From contig CM056999.1 in assembly GCA_029891345.1 (NCBI GenBank), positions 31,926,418 through 31,990,417 on the forward strand: a stretch of 64,000 bases of DNA, in the 5' to 3' direction. A program made the position numbers and the translations under genes. The notes under the pieces are model-generated. The model saw only the letters and a list, made by a program, of their open reading frames with translations. It was not told the DNA's origin and did not search any database. Every line of letters begins with the position of its first letter. Position 1 is the stretch's first letter. This document shows positions 38,557 through 64,000 of this stretch, piece after piece. Origin of the DNA: Dryococelus australis (lineage: Eukaryota; Arthropoda; Insecta; Phasmatodea; Phasmatidae).

Positions 38557-38899
38557 AGCCCGCTGGTGGTGGCGGTGGCGTTGTTGGTGGCGAGGGGTCA
38601 TTTTGGAGTCAATAGGAGTAATTTTGAAGTCAGAGATTGAATTCCGTATGTGATGTTTTAATGCCTGCATATGATTGGTCAGCTGCAATCTCGTGGCAGC
38701 ACGGTGATTGGCAGGTCGGTGTCTGCACAATGTATTAATGGTACAGTACGATTGATTCAAAGTCAATATGATGCCATAGGGCTTGCATACTCGTATATTA
38801 CATGCACTAGAGGGGTAAGCTGAGAGGTTTAGTTTGACAGCAGCTATGTGGATGGTAGATCATCTCGGCTAGTTTTTGCCTCTGCAAATAGATTTTTTC

Positions 38900-40335
38900 T
38901 CGACTTTTTGTTTTTAAGGTTAGTAAAGGTCATGTGGTTAATCTCGAGTAACCTGCCTCTAATAGGGTGGTAGTAGTATGTTATGTATTAACCTTGCTGA
39001 TTTTAAAGAGATTTTTCTCAAATTTTGGTTTTCAAGGTCATTAGAGGTCGTAGGTTCAAGGACGAGATATTCTGCAACTAATATGGTGGTGGTAGTTTGT
39101 AATGTATTATGCTTGTTGAGTTTTATGTATTTTTAAAGTTTTTTTTTTCAAGGGCATTCAAGGTCATGGGGCGATATTCTGCATCGAATTGCTTGTAGTA
39201 GTCTGTAATGTATTATGCTTGCTGACTTGTATGTATCTTTTCTCGAGCTTTTGTTTTCAAGGTCATTAAGTTCATGAGATCAAGGTCAAGGTAGACTGTA
39301 TCTACTATGGCAGTGGACGTCTGTAATGTATTATGCTCGCTGACTTTTGTGAATTTTTCTCGAGTTTTTGTTTTCAAAGTCATTCAATGTGTTTCTCAAG
39401 GTCGAGGTAGTCTGCATCAAGACGGTGGTAGTCTGTAATGTGTTATGCTTGCTGATGTTTATGTATTTTTTCTCGATTTTTGTTTTCAAGGTCATGGGGT
39501 CAAGGTCGTGGTAGTCAGGATATAATAAGGCAGTAATAGTCTGTACTGTATTGTGCTTATTGATTTTTATGCATTTTTCTCAAGTTTTACTTACAAGGTC
39601 ATTCAAGGCCATCGGGTCATGGTCATTGTCATTGGCTTTAAATATGATTTATGGGTGATGTCTACCAAGATGGTGGTCGTCTACAAATATGGTGACATCC
39701 AGTAATGTATAAACAAATGACGAATGAAAAAATCAAGATGGCGGAATAAGTATAGGTGAGAAGAGAGGGGATGGGGGATTTTTTGAATTTTTTTATTTTT
39801 ACATTTTAAATGTCAAAGGTCCTGGGTAAAGGGCAAAGGTAATCTGCTTACAATATGGATGCAAGATGGCTGATGCTTAAGTCTGACTCTTATCCTGTAT
39901 CCCTTGTATTGAATTGGCATTGGGTATGACTACAAAACTAATATGGCTGCCACTTCTCTGTAGGCCCTAAGGAATCCCCTCAAATTAATTACATTGGTTA
40001 AAATTATATTGCAGGATCTTATGCTATTTTTGAAGGAAAAATAGCTCATTTCTGAGCATCCTGTTAATACTTACTTTTTTTAAAATAATTTTTAATAATT
40101 TTATTAATAGATTTTTTAGAATTGTTGTTGGTTTTTCTGAAATTTTTTGGGATTTTTTGAGGATCTTTTGGAATTTTGTTTTGTTTTTTAATGTTTTTTT
40201 GAGTCAAAGGTCCTCGAGGTCAAGTTCAAGGTCTATGAGCATATGGGTCAGGCGTGAAAGGACAATGACATCCAAGATGGCGGTCGGTTGAAATAACAAC
40301 ATGGTGACTCCTCTCATGATGCGGGACTTTGACAA
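38900..40335 (+). repeat. AGGTCA/ATGGCGG module, copy 1, with 113-bp tandem repeats
   Basis: The unit marker tttgttttcaaggtcat recurs near 38912, 39032, 39148, 39257, 39373, 39486 and 39593, a spacing of 107-120 bp. Many copies are followed by tctgtaatgtattatgctt. A block with ccaagatggtggtcgtctac and aatgtataaacaaatgac comes next. An AT-rich spacer follows, and then a closing part with aggtcaagttcaaggtc and ccaagatggcggtcgg. The same order occurs in four other places in the window. No coding capacity is seen; the minus ORF 40204-40449 is inside the repeat. Confidence 0.85.
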
Positions 40336-46249: not shown

Positions 46250-46970
46250 AGAGTGCCGTCAGCTCACCTGGTGGCTGAATCGAGAAATTAACGCCACCTC
46301 TTTGTTGAAAATATAATCCAACGTGGAGGGTGCCGACAGCGCAACCTATACTTTCAAAACAGAAACAAATATGGCTGCCGCATGGAGGTGATATCGATTA
46401 TTAATACATCATCACCGTCTAGATGTTGAAAGCATATGAATTCCAATATGACGTCCTCCAGCAATGTATAAACAAATGACAAATTAAAAACTAGATGGCC
46501 ACATGAAATAGAATGAGTATAGGTGAGGGATGAGGGGATTAGTCGTCTGTGGGCATGGTGCTGGGGGAACCACCTGAAATGTAAGTTTTTTTATAATTTT
46601 ATTAAAATAATTTCTAATAATTTTTAATTATAAATTTTAATAGCTTTAATAATACATTTTTTATACATTGCTTCTATATTTTTGGGGATTTTTAAGGGAA
46701 TTTTTTGCGAATAAAGAGAAATTTTGATTTAAGTTTAATCAGTTTTGAGGAAAAAGGGAAATTTTTGAGGTAAAATTATTTCAGGGTTACTAATTTTAAA
46801 ATATTTTTTTTATAATATTTAACAAAATTTTTATAACAATTTAAATAAATTTTGTTAGAATTTATTTTTGGATATTTTGTTTTATTTTTGGGCAATAGTT
46901 CACCGGGATTAAAGGTCCAGTCCACCCGATCCAAGATAGCTACCGGCCGACCGGAATGACAGAGCATGAA
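46250..46970 (+). repeat. AGGTCA/ATGGCGG module, copy 2
   Basis: Starts with a tcacctggtggctgaat segment. It then holds ccaatatgacgtcctccagc, aatgtataaacaaatgac and gagtataggtgaggg, as in copy 1 at 39690-39770. A long AT-rich spacer follows, then ttaaaggtccag and ccgatccaagatagctaccg. The 113-bp tandem part is absent here. The reverse complement of this arrangement is at 56600-57290. Confidence 0.8.
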
Positions 46971-56225: not shown

Positions 56226-56599
56226 ACAATGGATTTTGTTTATATAAATATTTTGAATTAGTTTTATTATGATATGCGTTGTTGTTTCACTTGATACACA
56301 TTGTTTAACGGCCATTTTCGCGTGATGTTTGAGGGAAATTTTTACACGCCAGTAATTTAAAATAGAGAGGTTGGGGCTATCGGTGTCTGGCATCGGATCC
56401 GACCTCCGGCATCTTGAATTTCCCTTTCTCCCCTCCAAATTTTCCTTTGCCCCTCAAAATTTCCCATTATCCTTCAAAAATTCCCTCGTTTCCCTTTAAA
56501 AAAAAAAAAAAAAAAAACCTTCGATCCCTGCAGCTGCAAAAACGATCCCCCGAAAGGCTCTTTTCGATCCATCGAAAGGATTTGGGGGGGATCGTTCTC
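56226..56599. other. Unassigned, with poly-A and ttccc repeats
   Basis: Around 56410-56495 the motif aatttcccttt or aaatttccca repeats. A poly-A run of ~20 follows near 56496. The string catcggatccgacc near 56390 resembles the inverted end of the AGGTCA modules, so the module next to it may extend this far. Confidence 0.4.
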
Positions 56600-57290
56600 G
56601 AAGGCAGATCAGTGGAAGCCATATTGGTTTTATAGGCATAGGATATGCCAAATCGGCAAATGAGATCCAGGATCGGAGCCAGAGAAAACTATCTTGGTTC
56701 TGTCAGCCATCTTAGCCGCCATTTTTGATCCAGATAACCTTGACATTGACCCCATGACCTTGAATGACCTAAAACCCTAAAAAATTCAAAAACCTTTTTT
56801 TTTAACTGTATAAAAATTATTTTAAAATTTTTCTAAAAATATATAAAAATTATTTTTATAATATTAAGCATTTTAATGAAAAAACTTACATTTCCGCAGT
56901 TCACCTTCCCCAGCTCCATGTCTAACAGACGACTGACCATCCTGCAATAAATCCCATTGTCTTAACATTCGCGTCTCCTACCAATGATACTCATTGTTTA
57001 ATTAGTCGACAGACCTCTACCCTCCTCACCCATTCTAATTCTGACATCTTGGATTTTTTAATTTGTCATTTGTTTATACATTTCTGAAGGCCACCATCTT
57101 GGATTTCATGTTTTTATTTTCAACACCTTAATGGCACTGGTGTATTAATTCACCCACCAGGCGAGCTGGCTATTTAGCCACCAGGTGAAAGTCATATTTG
57201 TTTATGCTTTTAAATTATAGGTTGTGCTAACAGTGTCCTCCCTGCTGGATTCTGTTTTCAATGTTTAGATAAAGCTAATTTCTCGGTTAT
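56600..57290 (-). repeat. AGGTCA/ATGGCGG module, copy 3
   Basis: The reverse complement carries, in order, ttcacctggtggctaaat, aaacaaatatgac, ccaagatggtgg and aatgtataaacaaatgac-like sequence. An AT-rich spacer follows, then tcaaggtcatggggtcaatg, caaaaatggcggctaagatg and tctggctccgatcc. This is the same order as copy 2 at 46250-46970. Confidence 0.8.
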
Positions 57291-57566
57291 GCAGCCTGCT
57301 ATGGACCTGTAGCGAATTGTGACATTGACCATACCTACATAGTATGTAAATTGTCATATTTAATTTTTTGAATAATTTATAAAAATACATTTTTATTAAA
57401 GATATTTTTGTATAAAGCTATGTTTTTTTAAATTAATATAGACACATTTTTTAACACAAAGTGTAGTTTATGTATGATAAAATATACATAATCAGCAAAA
57501 ACTCAATAATATAATTAAACTTCGAACAGTCAAAATTACATATCATTATAATCTGCAGGTCTTTAA

Positions 57567-58184
57567 TTATGATTTTTGGGCATCTCGTAGAAGGCTGAGC
57601 AATTCATGTATGGTGGTAAGCAGCAGTGCTCTATGAGGGACCGCACAAATCACAGGGTAGCTATGAAGGCCATCGACACAAGCAGCAACAGCAGTACTTC
57701 TCTCTGATTCACCATCCATCACATTATCATTGCAGTGTAGACTTGACTCCTTTTTGATAGATGGCTCTATGATACTTGTGTCAATACCCGGCTCATCAAC
57801 AAAAGGTCTGTCGGTAGCAGACCCGCCATCAGCAGCCTCAGGAGTACACATTGCTGGTCGTCGACGAGTGAGTGCATGTTAATTTCTGGAACCAGAGACA
57901 GAATTATCCATCGTGGGTACTGACACGAGTGCCTGGCATCGGCGATTCACTCAGCAGTGTCTGATCGTCTGGCTGGCGTAATCCTTCTTGGACCCAGGTT
58001 ACTGGGAGTGGACCGATGGTCCATGCCCCGCCTGGAGCGAATCCATCTCACAGTCTGGCGTGTGCATGGTAGCATGAGTCTGTGCTAGAGCGATGATTAA
58101 GTCCATGGTGTAGGGAAGCTGTGTCTCCAGTCTCATGAACACGACAAAGGCCGATGCTCCTGGGCAATCCATTTGGAACTGCAT
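57567..58184 (-). CDS. Unidentified minus-strand ORFs at the end of the virus-like block
   Basis: Two open frames, 57851-57567 (94 codons, acidic, begins MCTPEAADGGSATDR) and 58184-57999 (61 codons), lie downstream of the recognisable virus-like relics on the same strand. The DNA here is less AT-rich than the neighbouring modules, as expected for former coding sequence. No domain is recognised. They may be pieces of one further gene of the element or chance frames. Confidence 0.3.
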
Positions 58185-58464
58185 TGGTTCGTAGACGATC
58201 GGAAAATGTGCGAATCGTCATTGCTGCATGCGATTACCATCGCACGTCTAGGTTTAGATGCACAGATAAAATTCTTCTGCCACGAAACTATGCTCCATGC
58301 TACTGTAGTTTGGCTTGGTGGTTGTAAACATGTTCGTAAGGCAGAATGGAGTCTTATTTACAATCAGACCTCTAGGAAACGACTAACGAACTCGTAGATT
58401 CTCCCACTTATATATATAATTGATGTCTATCAGGTGTGCCACCTTATGAAAAATTAAATTCCCT

Positions 58465-58960
58465 CACATGTTGAGAAGATGTGGTGAAATTTTGTCTAGT
58501 CGTAGGCAGCCGATATCCAGTCCAAGTACGAGGCACACCATTTGTGCAGCAGCTGCACAGCGAAGGACATCCATATTTTGCCCGACATAGATAATTTCCA
58601 CTTCATATTTACATAAGTAGCTAAGCCATTTTTTCTGCTGAGGTCTTGCTACGTTAGTCGGAGCCTTCCGGTACAGCATCAGCAAGTCTCGCAGCATGTT
58701 TCCCACCTGTTAATAAGGAATTTTGTCTTCGTTCCCCTTTTGTTCTTGGTAGTAATTGGTTAGCCAGGCATTTGTTTTCTTGCTCTTCTCGTGCAACAGT
58801 TTCCACGAATAAGGCGGGTGGAAATTGTGGGTTTGTGTTTTGCCATCTTAATTGTAGGACACTGCGATCTCCTTGAGCACGTAGCCTCTGTGGTTTTGGA
58901 AACCCTGCAGATTACAGTGCATCTTGACGCTGAATATGTTCGAAGATGGACAAAAGTTCT
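58465..58960 (-). pseudogene. Virus-like element gene relic, third of the block
   Basis: A frame reads from about 58935 (NLQGFQNHRGYVLKEIAVSY), across one stop, through NFHPPYSWKLLHEKSKKTNA (about 58850) and NAWLTNYYQEQKGNEDKIPY (about 58790). After another stop it enters the ORF 58706-58464 (MGNMLRDLLMLYRKAP). I recognise this order from proteins encoded next to capsid-like genes in large arthropod Polinton/adintovirus-like elements; their function is unknown to me. Two stops show it is dead. Confidence 0.5.
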
Positions 58961-59079
58961 CGTGTGTGTAAACAGTTATATTTATGTATTCTCAGCTGCG
59001 CTCACGACAGTATTTTGACAATTTTAGCTCGGTAATTGTATGACACAAGCCAGTCGTGAATTATCAGGCAGAATGTCTA

Positions 59080-60000
59080 CGTGTTGGCAGGAATATTTAC
59101 ATGTGTAGTGAATTAGATCCTGCAGTCGATTACATTGGATGTAATATGCTTGTCCTGTTTACTCTCATCGCGAGACCAAACTCTTGAAAGTATCAGGACT
59201 CGATGTCGTGGATTTGGGGCGCCCATAATATGCACTTTGGAGTTGAGCATACATCTAATATAACACAGGTACTGCCAATTTTCAAAGTTCATGTTCATGT
59301 CAATGTACGGATAGCTTTCGTTTCAAAAATATTTTCACATTTTATATTTGACATGTGTTGAACTGCGAATGGCTGACTCTCACATTGTGGTGCCTTCTGG
59401 TTTGTAGCCCTACAATGATGTACCTCGCATTCTCAGAAGCAAAGCTGGACTTCACTACCAAGTTGCTAGCAATCGGGGGAATGTCTCGCGACTCCACGAC
59501 CTGAAAGTCACTTAGATGTTTTTGCCATCTTCCACATTCTATAGTATCTTTATACGTTCAGCAGTGCTCAACTGCACATGAGGCACCGTCTATCCAATAG
59601 ACTGTAGTTTCAGTTCCACCGTCTCCAGGTTTCCTCCCATACCCACGATGGTGCCTGCATGCATATTAGCTAAGAGGAGCACATGTTCTTGCTTCGAATA
59701 GAAGATCATTTATTTGTAGTCTTGGGCAAATTCCAATAGCATGGAGAGCAAGATGCACGCTTCGGACTTGTCTTCAGAGTATATAGGAACACTGTAGTCA
59801 TTTTCGTTAGCCCAGCCTGCCATCTTGGCTGCAGACAGCTCATTCGGCGTAAGCAAAAGGTAATTTTTGATTGTTACTGGTTATGCCCACATCTCGCGAC
59901 TGGTCCACCTTGGTACCATTGAAAAAATATGTGATATGATCGATCAGGTGAAGATTTCCATTGCTTGTTATATTCGTCGATGCTGGGTTGGTTCCTTCTT
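59080..60000 (-). pseudogene. Virus-like structural-type gene relic (capsid candidate)
   Basis: Minus-strand segments in one order: FFNGTKVDQSRDVGITSNNQ (about 59925), ENDYSVPIYSEDKSEACILL (about 59800), KQEHVLLLANMHAGTIVGMG (about 59690), VPHVQLSTAERIKIL (about 59585) and SSFASENARYIIVGLQT (about 59445). Last comes a C-terminal YLCYIRCMLNSKVH (about 59270). The pieces switch frame and carry stops. The pattern fits a conserved protein of large arthropod virus-like elements that I take to be a major capsid-type protein; that role is an inference. No intact reading frame remains. Confidence 0.5.
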
Positions 60001-60419
60001 CTTTCGTCAGAGTTCCCCTAATTCGCAGGAAAGGCTAGTAAGGAAGAGAGCAAATATCTTGGTGTTGGACCACTATACAAACTTCCGATGATAGTGTGTA
60101 TGATCGAATCAGCAAAGGCTGGAACACATGAAATTCTACTTATGTTTCGCTGTCTTAAAAAATTACTACCAGCTCTTCGATGTTTAGGTAACCTTCCATG
60201 GCGATTTATTTTGAAGCAGAGACTGTAGAGGAAAATTTCGCTATTGCATGTTATCTCCTTGGATACCTACAGTGTAATAATTGCTGGTTTTGCGTGACAC
60301 TTTACTTTTTTGCTTCTGGTCGCGGTAGATTTTATTCCCAACTTTTCGAATGTAGTAATAGGGTTATTTATTAGTTTCGAAATTTCACCAACTTTCCATG
60401 TTGATCGACGACTGTCACG

Positions 60420-61019
60420 GCCAACTCGTGTACTCTCTTTGCAACGACCGAAACTTAAATGATGCTTTGCAGTTCCACGACCAGTTTAAACACTGAAGGG
60501 AGCGTAAGCAAAAATTCGTCCAGTACATCGCTCGGCCTGCCATTGAGGTATGTGTCACTAGCTGAATTGCAGTTTATTCGTATCACATTGACCGGCAGTT
60601 GTCAATGGGCCGCCACGACTCATGTGTTTTGCCATCTTAATAGACACATGGTTCGAACCCCAGCATCGGTCCAGTAGTATCTGGTTTCGTAAAGTTGATA
60701 TCTTTGCTGCATCTGATAACACTCTTCAGAGTATTGGGATTTCCAGGTAGTTGGAATCCCATGTCGGGGTTCAGCATATCATCTATTTACCTTGTAATGT
60801 CGTCCATTTGATAAGAGCCTAAAGGTAGCGACTCCTCGCGGGAAACATTACCCCTTTTCACGAGGTGCATCTTACAGTTTTTTCATCGCTGTTCGGTATC
60901 ACATTGTAGGTTTAAAAATCGACAAGGCCTATGCACCTTTCCCCCTCCTGGTCGAGTGATGGAAAGTGTACCACACACAGCTCGGAGCTATGACCTGTCA
61001 GGGTAACGATTATCGACAT
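60420..61019 (-). pseudogene. Virus-like structural-type gene relic (beta-rich protein)
   Basis: Starts at Met 61019 with MSIIVTLTGHSSELCVVHFP and CIGLVDF, then a stop at about 60914. LPLGSYQMDDITR (about 60830), GNPNTLKSVIRCSKDINFTK (about 60740) and PMLGFEP follow. After a frame change come MAGRAMYW-type sequence (about 60545) and LAVTVVDQHGKLV (about 60410). The combination of a short beta-strand-rich protein with the GSYQ-DDI and NTLKS motifs is one I associate with virion-type genes beside the protease in arthropod Polinton-like elements. It starts 10-100 bp after the protease relic, so the two were probably adjacent genes of one transcription unit. Confidence 0.55.
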
Positions 61020-61029
61020 GACATACAGT

Positions 61030-61417
61030 TTCCTCACAATATATAGCCATTTAATGCAATTACTAGTACAAGCGAACCAAGAAGCGAAGACACAAATTTT
61101 CCACAGTTTCACGTGTTAGGCATTTGCTCCATTTCGTAACTGTACATTAGTTTGGTACATTTCAGATACTCTCGCAGTTTGGGTGGAGGATGCAAATTCC
61201 CGAAACTGTCACAATAGTCTGCATGTTTGTCTCATGTTTCGTAAGCTACCAAGTGCTTACTGCTTACTGGGCCTGGCTCCTGTATCCAGATTAATTATGG
61301 CACATTCGTTTCTCTTTTGTTAAGGGGTAAAATCATCTATCATTACTTTCCCCTGAAATGCAGTCTTTTCAATTTGTGTGTAAACAATTCCATGTCCACG
61401 ATTGTGAGTGGTTGTTT
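61030..61417 (-). pseudogene. Adenain-type cysteine protease relic
   Basis: Minus strand, in order: LTIVDMELFTHKLKRLHFRG (about 61405), a stop, then RNECAIINLD (about 61305). Next are KHLVAYE (about 61270) and YCDSFGNLHPPPKLREYLK (about 61215), then MYSYEMEQMPN and NCGKFVSSLL (about 61135-61080). The spacing of His, Asp-Ser-Phe-Gly-Asn, Gln and Cys-Gly fits the catalytic layout of adenovirus-type (C5/Ulp-like) proteases, which Polinton and adintovirus elements encode for capsid maturation. The usual Trp after the His is Leu here. Stops and at least two frame changes break it. Confidence 0.65.
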
Positions 61418-61490
61418 CAGTACAGAATGCATTAATGCCTTATTCTGTTGCATCACTTTTGCACACGTCCACCTTATACTATGTATGCCC

Positions 61491-61706
61491 TTAGATAGAA
61501 GCCTTGGCCAATTCTTTACCCTTGGCGATAGCTTCCATATTTGCATTGTGTCTTTGTGCCTCGGGCAATTTCTTACGTTTGATCGATGCTGTGTTGATGG
61601 CTCGGGTGATAACATTCGTGGCTCTGATTAGGTACCTGAGGTCGCCGAGTGCAGGCAAAAGCATTGAAAAATCTGCCGGTAGATGCTTTCTTGCCCTTGC
61701 ATTCAT
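61491..61706 (-). pseudogene. Small basic protein at the head of the virus-like block
   Basis: The open frame of 71 codons has a hydrophobic stretch (FSMLLPALGDLRYL), then TRAINTASIKRKKLPEAQRH and NANMEAIAKGKEL. The sequence upstream of the protease relic in related elements has this type of Ala/Gly-rich start followed by a basic segment. I regard it as the gene immediately 5' of the protease. It could be the precursor of a small virion protein; this is inference. The ORF ends in a stop at 61491, 70 bp before the first protease segment. Confidence 0.45.
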
Positions 61707-61799
61707 TTCTCTCTTTTGTTACTGCTTTTAGTTTAACTTGTGCCTTTCGTTTGCTCTATCTGGCTGATCCCATTTTAATCTGCGCCTTTCAGCAGTACG

Positions 61800-62840
61800 G
61801 AACTGATGAGTCTGGGGAAGGGCATCGGGTATCGGAGTCAGAGCCAGGGGATCCGCCATGTTTTTACATCACCCGACCGCCATCTTGGATTTCATTGACC
61901 CTGGTCATTGACCAGTGACCTTGAACTTGACCCCGGGACCTCTAACCTTAAAAACTGTTTAAAAAACGTATAAAGTATCCCCAGAAATTCCTCAAATATT
62001 TCTAATTAAAATTCTAGAAAATTCCGAAGAAATGTATTATTTAAAAAAATTATTAAAATATTTTAAGAGGATCTCCAAAAATTTCCAGTGTTCCCCAGAA
62101 CAGGTGAAGGGGATCAGAGATCCATGTGACCCAGGGGCAAAGATCAGAAACCCAGGTGATCAGGGTCAGTGACCCAGGGGCCAGGAGATAATGACCTCTG
62201 ACCTTTGACTTTGGCCTTGTCCTTTAACTTGAAAAATCAAAAATCCGAAAATTTCACAAAGAAATAAAAAAATTATTTAAAACTATAAATAAGTTTATTT
62301 GAAAATATAAAAAAATTATTTAAGTAACTAAAATTTCCTGTAGTTTCCCTACCTCCCTCGCCTAACATATTTGTCAGCATGCCTCCAACCCCTTACCCAT
62401 ACCCAGTCAGCCATCTTGGTAGGCGATCACCCTCTTGGTAGGCAACTACCATCTTAGTAGACACCGCATTATCACCATCTTGGAAGCCAGTGTCCATTAG
62501 CAATTGAACGTTGACCTTTGACACTTGACCCCTGACCCATTACCTCGACCTTGACCCAATGACCTTAATGACATTGAAAACAAAAACTCGAGAAAAATGC
62601 ATAAAAGTCAACAAGCATAATACACTACAGACTATTACAGCCATATTAGATGCAGACTACCTTGTCCTTGATCCCATGACTTTTAATTACCTTGAAAACA
62701 AAACACATTACTTTAAATCAAATTCAGCAAGCATACGACATTACAGATTACCACCACTATATTAGCTGCAGACTACCTTGATCTTTAGTACATGACCTTG
62801 AATTACCTTGAAAACAAAATTCGAATAATAATTTACAAAA
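61800..62840 (-). repeat. AGGTCA/ATGGCGG module, copy 4 (left arm of hairpin)
   Basis: The reverse complement begins with 117-bp units carrying gttttcaaggtaattaaaag-type sequence. It then has aagatggtagttgcctacca and ccaagatggctgactgggta, an AT-rich spacer, and ggggtcaagttcaaggtcac. It closes with aatccaagatggcggtcggg and tctgactccgatacccgatg. Order and orientation agree with copy 5 reversed. Confidence 0.88.
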
Positions 62841-62849
62841 GTCAACAAC

Positions 62850-63930
62850 ATGGGGTCAAGGTCGAGGTAGTCAGCATCTAATATGGTGATAGTAGCTTGT
62901 AATATATTATGCTTGTTGACTTATGCATTTTTCTCAAGTTTTTGTTTTCTAGGTTATTCAAGGTCATGGGGTCAAGGTTGAGGTAGTCTGCATCTAATAT
63001 GGCGGTAGTAGACTGTAATTTTGTTTTATTGTTGAATTTTATTTATTTTTCATGTGTTCTTGGTTTTTCAAGTTCATTAAAGGTCATGGGGTCAAGGTCG
63101 AATTATTCTGCATTTCTTATGGTTGTAGTAGTCTGTAATTTATTATGCTTGCTGATTCTTGTGCATTTTCTCGAGTTTTTGTTTTCAAGGCCATTCAAAG
63201 TCTAGGGGTTAAGGTCTAGGTAATGAGTCAGGGATCAAAGGGTCAAATGTCAAAGTTTAATTGCTAATGGGCATTGGCTTTCAAGATTGTGAACGGGTGA
63301 TGACTGCCAAAATGGCGGTTGCCTACCAAGATGGCGGTCGTCTATCAAGTTGGCGGTCACCTACGAAGATGGCTGACTGGGTATGGGCGTGTGGGTGGTC
63401 TTCCGACTAATTTGTTAGGTGAGGGAGGTGGGAGAACCACAGAAGATTGAATTTTTTAAAAATAATATTTAGTAATTATTTAAAAATTTAATCAATTTAT
63501 TCATAGTTTTTAATGGTATATTTTTGGTAACTTTTGTAATGTTTTTTATTTTCTTGTTTTCATGGTCAACATCAAAGGTCAATATCATGCGCTCCTGACC
63601 CCTGGGTCACTGATACGGTCACCTGGATCGCTGATCCCTCTCGCCTGCTCCAGAAAAAATTATAAATGTTTGGGGATCCTATTTAATATTTTTAAATAAT
63701 TTTCATAATACATTTTTCGGAATTTTGTAGAATTGTTTGGAACTTTTTGAGGATTTTTGGGGATTTTTTGTAGGGTGTTTGAGGTTAGAGGTCCCCAGGA
63801 TGAAGTTGAAGTTCATGGGTCAAAGGTAAAGGTCAATTGCATTCGAGATGTCGGTCGGGTTATGTAACAAAATGGTGGCTCCCTTGGCTCTGGCTCCGAT
63901 GTCCGATGCCTTTGCCCCAAATTCATAATT
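62850..63930 (+). repeat. AGGTCA/ATGGCGG module, copy 5 (right arm of hairpin)
   Basis: Units begin with ttgttttctaggttattcaa near 62945, 63063 and 63180, a spacing of ~117 bp. A stretch with aaaatggcggttgcctacca and agatggcggtcgtctatcaa follows. After that come an AT-rich spacer, aggtcaatatcatgcgctcc, and finally gatgtcggtcgggttatgta and ctctggctccgatgtccgat. It is the inverted counterpart of 61800-62840. Confidence 0.88.
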
Positions 63931-64000
63931 TCCCTACTACTCCTTTCTCTTGATCTTATCTCCCATTCCCATTTTCAACTTGGCGTTCATCATGTTGAAT

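What the first reader, a model, noticed from the sequence alone, without database searches (positions are those of the whole stretch)
57560..61706. Minus-strand relic of a Polinton/adintovirus-like gene block
Five adjacent minus-strand relics lie in order: a small basic protein, an adenain-type protease, a short beta-rich protein, a larger capsid-type protein, and a further element-specific protein. Seen in the sequence: ordered motif strings with stops, including NECAIINLD, DSFGN and NCGK of the protease. Known: adenovirus-type proteases next to capsid genes mark Polinton/Maverick and adintovirus elements. Inferred: the roles of the non-protease genes. No polymerase or integrase was found in the window, so this is a deleted derivative.
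Basis: partly seen in the sequence, partly recalled or inferred. Interest (0 to 1): 0.88.

Follow-up and report, generated by a model that had tools for sequence, protein, structure and literature searches.

The report
Decayed Maverick virus-transposon without its polymerase
A worn-out copy of a Maverick (Polinton), a virus-like jumping element, sits in what looks like a stick insect genome; it belongs to a large family in which shortened copies that had lost the DNA polymerase but still carried capsid genes also spread.

Summary
The three protease motif strings lie where stated. The block is a phospholipase A2/capsid protein, adenain-type protease, penton candidate, double-jelly-roll capsid protein and a downstream gene X, broken by stops and frameshifts. 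The element is larger than reported: 56351-66315, past the window end, with inverted terminal repeats, AG...CT ends and a 5-of-6 matching 6-bp target duplication. An integrase part lies just beyond the window (64537-65043). No PolB lies between X and the repeat. A 2151-bp foldback with Polinton-type ends and an exact duplication (CCTTTC) splits the phospholipase gene. The copy belongs to a large family (2397 first-look candidates; 40 scored, all matched). Three of 19 other copies keep a PolB start after X. Another PolB-less junction is crossed by all 40 matches scored (1961 candidates), so a PolB-less form multiplied; where its other genes were read (4 copies) capsid genes are present in all and integrase in 2. 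Coding regions show a weak third-position excess. Mavericks, and their abundance in stick insects, are known; the polymerase-less spread is the interesting part.

The parts
56351..57510 (+). left terminal inverted repeat of the main element, starting AGTAATTT (inner end approximate); preceded by target duplication CACGCC (right copy CACGCT after 66315)
   Evidence: ends, duplication 5 of 6; arms 79% identical, K2P 0.245
57840..58557 (-). gene X relic, in the place of ORF8 of Spodoptera Mavericks; function unknown
   Evidence: tblastn 9.7e-09 and 1.8e-05 with L010 piece; no third-position excess in 4 copies; place compared with the ORF table of PMC5803895
59116..60190 (-). major capsid protein (double jelly-roll) relic, stops and frameshifts
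60530..61146 (-). penton / minor capsid candidate relic (role inferred from position; no family hit)
   Evidence: tblastn 4.3e-35; no Pfam hit for two pieces of other copies
61100..61624 (-). adenain-type cysteine protease relic
   Evidence: motifs; tblastn 6.8e-48; kin L019:105-437 matches PF00770 at E 0.01
61512..61788 (-). C-terminal half of capsid/phospholipase A2 protein; the 'small basic protein'
   Evidence: tblastn 2.7e-16 with L018 piece that matches PF08398 at 9.4e-11
61791..63941 (.). nested foldback (two ~1.07-kb arms, 79% identical) with AG...CT ends and exact 6-bp target duplication CCTTTC
63943..64000 (-). beginning, inside the window, of the N-terminal PLA2 half (runs to 64340); beyond the window follow the N-terminal, zinc-finger-like stretch of the ATPase gene 64337-64546 (+), integrase 64537-65043 (+) and the right inverted repeat to 66315
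   Evidence: using L009 (window positions 58001-68000)

Best explanation
The feature is a dead, internally deleted copy of an insect-type Maverick/Polinton. The ancestral element, as seen piecewise across copies, ran: terminal repeat, integrase, an ORF2-like gene and ATPase on one strand; PLA2-capsid protein, protease, penton candidate, double-jelly-roll capsid, gene X and PolB on the other; terminal repeat. It inserted with a 6-bp target duplication, by its integrase (duplication shown for two copies, each with one mismatch; role of the integrase inferred). Forms that had lost PolB then spread as units (shown: shared deletion junctions). In the four copies of the larger PolB-less class whose other genes were read, capsid and protease genes are present in all and integrase in two. 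They were presumably replicated by PolB supplied in trans (inferred). The window copy is a PolB-less form of another junction; it also lost most of the ATPase gene, ORF2 and the integrase start, received a terminal-repeat-only foldback with its own target duplication, and decayed.
For: Ends and duplications: main CACGCC/CACGCT, nested CCTTTC/CCTTTC; copy L024, right end followed by GATTAT, one place in 3 kb on the left with GACTAT before the same terminus. Genes: rve PF00665 1e-8, PLA2 PF08398 9.4e-11, DJR PF21738 3.2e-46 and 6.5e-11; ATPase piece of L027 related (2e-19) to one matching Pox_A32 at 4e-4, below cut-off. PolB N-terminal sequence (recognised by kinship to the stretch directly upstream of a PF03175 match) after X, same strand, in L016, L017 and L024: 3 of 19 other copies. 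Shared PolB-less junctions: X|repeat in window, L010, L015; capsid end|repeat in L013, L014, L026, L027 with near-identical letters, crossed by all 40 matches scored, on 12 contigs, of 1961 candidates. PolB_2: 54 matches in 47 places from 91 scored of 6288 candidates; PLA2: 150 matches from 150 scored of 11228. Spread: 20 copies, mean K2P 0.254, internal branches 7.5% of tree length, near the 0.245 between this copy's own arms.
Against: Penton and gene X roles rest on position only. No Pfam hit for the window family's protease pieces themselves. L018, where both ends are visible, shows no matching duplication (read by eye), and leaves the capsid end at the same place but with other letters after it. 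The 40 and 20 copies are the best matches of a query, not a random sample. Many of the 19 copies are deleted or run off the fetched stretch on the PolB side, so 3 of 19 is no frequency. PolB counts depend on one Pfam model. Supply of PolB in trans was not shown; the one PolB place read on both sides (L033 5 kb, L035 4 kb) has no virion gene or terminal repeat there.
Confidence: 0.85

Rival explanations
1. Ordinary full Maverick whose copies lost PolB independently after insertion by random decay; no PolB-less lineage ever moved.
For: Copies are heavily decayed and carry many different deletions.
Against: The same capsid-end|repeat junction in L013, L014, L026, L027 and an alignment through it in all 40 matches scored, on 12 contigs; the arm at that junction includes about 120-160 bp otherwise found beside the integrase.
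Confidence: 0.07
2. The PolB-less form is ancestral and some copies captured PolB later.
For: Polinton-like viruses without PolB exist (PMC11071308, passages; PMC11071296, passages).
Against: Spodoptera Mavericks carry POLB with the same small-ORF series (PMC5803895, section 11 part 1); in the capsid-end junction class the repeat arm reaches into sequence that belongs to the integrase side.
Confidence: 0.08
3. A free-living adintovirus integrated repeatedly (endogenous virus) rather than a family that multiplied inside the genome.
For: Virion gene set and integrase; a much less decayed, different virion-gene element lies beside copy L019.
Against: Star-like tree of old copies and large candidate numbers suggest multiplication in the germline; this copy is old (arms K2P 0.245).
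Confidence: 0.15

Closest known systems
Sf Maverick 1 and 2 of Spodoptera frugiperda (PMC5803895; passages and part 1 of section 11 read)
   Same: ATPase (A32-like), integrase, CAP with parvovirus-type PLA2, adenain-like PRO, small ORFs with a 404-aa ORF7, and POLB; weak database hits for PRO there too
   Different: Here integrase, ORF2-like gene and ATPase lie on the strand opposite the virion genes (Sf: eight small ORFs in tandem on one strand); PolB sequence was found in only 3 of 19 other copies. The ORF2 equivalence is by place in the order, not by a sequence test
Mavericks of other stick insects, Timema cristinae and Clitarchus hookeri (PMC5691397; one passage read)
   Same: Mavericks abundant in phasmids: 145,675 copies, 3.13% of the T. 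cristinae genome; third most abundant repeat type in C. hookeri
   Different: That passage gives repeat counts only; no gene order, junctions or PolB status in what was read
Adintoviruses (PMC11071296, passages read)
   Same: Adenovirus-like virion genes, adenain, PacK-type ATPase and retrovirus-like integrase together
   Different: Defined there by an OTU-bearing PolB, BLAST-recognisable hexon and chromodomain integrase; PolB is missing from this copy and these domains were not tested

Membership tests
Maverick/Polinton | AG...CT ends with 6-bp target site duplication | tested here: met
   Main element 5 of 6 bases, nested element 6 of 6, L024 5 of 6; L018 failed. That these are Polinton hallmarks is recalled
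Maverick/Polinton | long terminal inverted repeats | tested here: met
   About 1.1-kb arms, 79% identical
Maverick/Polinton | retroviral-type (rve) integrase | tested here: met
   Part at 64537-65043 by tblastn; family copy L025 PF00665 1e-8
Maverick/Polinton | adenain-type protease | tested here: inconclusive
   Motifs in order; only a related element's protease reaches PF00770, E 0.01, below its cut-off
Maverick/Polinton | double jelly-roll major capsid protein | tested here: met
   PF21738 3.2e-46 in L022; window pieces 0.004 and 0.006, below cut-off
Maverick/Polinton | A32/FtsK-type packaging ATPase | tested here: inconclusive
   This copy keeps only the N-terminal stretch, not the ATPase domain (64337-64546); L027 vs L032 BLASTP 2e-19, L032 Pox_A32 4e-4, below cut-off; no Pfam hit for L027 itself
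Maverick/Polinton | protein-primed PolB | tested here: not met
   Not found in this copy; PolB N-terminal sequence in the expected place in 3 of 19 other copies, so the family had it
Adintovirus (strict) | OTU-bearing PolB and chromodomain integrase | not tested
   No PolB in this copy; integrase C-terminus not examined for a chromodomain

The most novel reading that the evidence does not exclude
In this genome a Maverick lineage shed its DNA polymerase but kept and used its integrase, packaging ATPase, protease and capsid genes, and as a polymerase-dependent satellite outnumbered the complete elements; its proteins stayed under selection after the loss, and even terminal-repeat-only foldbacks were mobilised.
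Probability: 0.35. Interest if true: 0.65.

Novelty: new variant of a known kind. Interest (0 to 1): 0.42.

Why it matters
Non-autonomous transposons usually lose their genes and keep only their ends (recalled). Here forms that multiplied had lost the polymerase while still carrying virion genes. If selection really continued on those genes, capsids would matter to the spread of Mavericks inside an insect lineage, and the question whether Mavericks are viruses or transposons could be tested with one genome. The paper on the assembly that this genome matches left 1.56 Gb of repeats unclassified, and the words Maverick and Polinton do not occur in its main text.

Tried and rejected
Led nowhere: Pfam on ten window pieces; PDB by sequence with protease, capsid and PLA2 pieces (0 matches each; ATPase: 6 weak matches, best E 0.12); protein database with the L024 protease (8 candidates, none passed); viral contigs with the capsid (9 pattern matches, none confirmed); a scan for further Polinton-type pairs in 37-48 kb of the window (none); a scan for exact 6-bp duplications between terminus-like motifs in the window stretch and the 23 loci held then (L010-L032: only the nested element).

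Rejected: that the family never had PolB. I held this until PolB starts turned up in L016, L017 and L024. Weaker zinc-finger-like matches to the same query in L012, L010, L020, L021 and the window lie elsewhere and were not counted. Rejected: that overlapping PLA2 matches at the nested insertion mean a long target duplication; the ends give CCTTTC.

Not obtained: the PF00770 and PF21738 genome searches, a genome search with the nested foldback and one with the window's own X|repeat junction did not complete. One paper (PMC8502044, adintoviruses) is not held.
Full report
What was checked. The window is G000:C7:31926418-31990417 of a 3.42-Gb genome. The stretch 60900-61600 drew 2397 first-look candidates in the same genome; 40 were scored and all 40 matched, the window itself and 39 others at 75-78% identity. 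So the block is part of a dispersed family.

Genes. I fetched 19 other copies with flanks and used their natural open stretches, unrepaired, as queries. Pfam on ten pieces: rve integrase 1e-8 (L025), PLA2-like 9.4e-11 (L018), double jelly-roll 6.5e-11 (L010) and 3.2e-46 (L022), and double jelly-roll 8.4e-16 for L019:2652-3905, which belongs to another element; the other five (two of L020, L027, L028, L010:8684-9370) gave no hit. A further ten pieces: two of the window's own match double jelly-roll weakly and in order along the profile (59840-60034 E 0.004, positions 6-35; 59342-59557 E 0.006, positions 173-209), L020:1290-1748 matches rve at 3.3e-6 (below cut-off), L019:948-1415 (other element) PLA2 at 1.1e-14; the L024 protease, two penton-candidate pieces and an ATPase piece gave nothing. 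By tblastn the window copy holds X 57840-58557, capsid 59116-60190, penton candidate 60530-61146, protease 61100-61624, PLA2 protein 61512-61788 and 63943-64340, all on the minus strand, then the N-terminal stretch of the ATPase gene 64337-64546 and an integrase part 64537-65043 on the plus strand. Stops lie inside most of these matches. The ATPase domain, the ORF2-like gene and the integrase start have no match here.

The protease identity rests on the motifs and on a relative: beside copy L019 lies another, much less decayed element whose protease (L019:105-437) matches Peptidase_C5 (PF00770) at E 0.01, below the family cut-off, and whose ATPase (L032:6876-7487) matches Pox_A32 at 4e-4, also below cut-off. 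The family protease of L024 is related to it (BLASTP 9e-10), and the ATPase of L027 likewise (2e-19); the ORF2-like genes are not measurably related (E 0.33).

Boundaries and insertion. The main element runs from 56351 to 66315 (9965 bp with the nested element), begins AG, ends CT, and is flanked by CACGCC and CACGCT. Its arms, about 1.1 kb, are 79% identical (K2P 0.245). A 2151-bp foldback at 61791-63941 has ends of the same type and an exact duplication CCTTTC; arms 79% identical, K2P 0.251. For fixed ends an exact 6-bp match has a chance of 1 in 4096 and a match of at least 5 about 19 in 4096 (arithmetic, equal bases). The same was then looked for in copy L024: its right end is followed by GATTAT, and the only place in the 3 kb on its left with that word (one change allowed) before AG is GACTAT followed by the same terminus. 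L018 shows both ends but no duplication.

PolB. Copies L016, L017 and L024 (3 of 19; many of the 19 are deleted or run off the fetched stretch on this side) carry sequence after X, on the same strand, related to the stretch directly upstream of a PolB_2 match elsewhere; the polymerase domain itself was not seen in them. In L024 the left repeat follows within about 40 bp, so its PolB is cut to a start. The window, L010 and L015 go from X into the repeat (the junction is AT-rich and its exact base uncertain). L013, L014, L026 and L027 go from the capsid end into the repeat with near-identical junction letters; their arm begins about 120-160 bp further in than those of L010, L015 and L024, in sequence that otherwise lies beside the integrase. 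L018, also printed, leaves the capsid end at the same place but differs after it. All four of these copies keep capsid and protease matches; L013 and L014 also an integrase match. A 261-bp query across that junction drew 1961 candidates; 40 were scored and all 40 matched on 12 contigs (79-85% identity and L013 itself at 100%); each starts at query position 13 or earlier and ends at 226 or later, while the junction is near position 128, so each crosses it. The junction was therefore inherited: the PolB-less form moved. What other genes those 40 carry was not read, except for L013 and L027. None of the 47 PolB places lies within 20 kb of the 40 junctions. In the genome PolB_2 gave 54 matches from 91 scored of 6288 candidates, PLA2 150 from 150 scored of 11228; both are lower bounds.

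Age and selection. Twenty copies (701 bp; the best matches of the window query) differ by mean K2P 0.254 (0.123-0.308), in a star-like tree with 7.5% of the length in internal branches, close to the divergence of this copy's own arms. This fits a burst followed by decay; no clock was applied. Third codon positions vary more than first and second: over eight gene pieces in L013, L014 and L026, which share the PolB-less junction, 449 of 1441 third positions vary against 362 of 1446 and 333 of 1445 (Fisher p 7.7e-7); without CpG sites 309 of 1206 against 282 of 1264 and 245 of 1276 (p 9e-4). With L027 added p is 7e-6 and 0.004. Genes differ: the penton candidate and the integrase show no third-position excess in the four-copy test; within the wider clade the protease (p 0.09) and integrase (p 0.11) are not significant while PLA2, ORF2-like gene and capsid are; X shows none in 4 copies. 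Part of the variation may predate the deletion or have come by recombination (L027 falls outside the others in the tree), so selection after PolB loss is suggested, not shown.

Host. The genome has contigs of 403.5, 376.2, 373.0, 326.6 and 262.28 Mb among those seen (not all lengths were seen); these five make 51% of the length and the first four 43%. The Dryococelus australis assembly is reported as 3.42 Gb, 17 major scaffolds, N50 262.27 Mb, L50 5 (PMC10268593, abstract and passages). The identification is inferred from these numbers.

Comparison. The gene set matches Spodoptera Maverick 1 and 2: ATP, ORF2, INT, CAP with PLA2, PRO, ORF6, ORF7, ORF8, POLB (PMC5803895, passages and section 11 part 1), except that integrase, ORF2-like gene and ATPase are on the opposite strand. 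Mavericks are known to be abundant in stick insects (PMC5691397, one passage). Searches for print on PolB-less or non-autonomous Polintons showed 15 of 20, 12 of 200 and 6 of 6 papers; none of those listings, by title and start of abstract, describes a capsid-coding PolB-less derivative. I did not read those papers beyond the ones cited, and subscription journals are mostly not held.

Verdict.

Noticed in passing
L019:105-3905 and L032:5384-8000: A different and much less decayed virion-gene element beside copy L019: ATPase, protease, PLA2 protein, further ORFs and a 418-aa double-jelly-roll ORF; no integrase or PolB seen among the open stretches printed.
   Followed up: partly
window 38894-40314 and 46278-46692: Further repeats (38.9-39.6 kb with about 106-112 bp period) related to the nested foldback arms and the main terminal repeat; no matching ends with duplication found.
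   Followed up: partly
L032:2102-4847: Open stretches that look like a BEL/Pao-type retrotransposon (recognised by eye) next to the younger element.
   Followed up: no
L033:1-1935: A PolB_2 gene start with a zinc-finger-like stretch that has no virion gene or terminal repeat within 5 kb on one side and 4 kb on the other; PolB may also travel alone.
   Followed up: partly
L013, L014, L026, L027 left arms: The left repeat arm of the capsid-end junction class carries about 120-160 bp otherwise found beside the integrase, as if copied from the right end when PolB was lost.
   Followed up: partly
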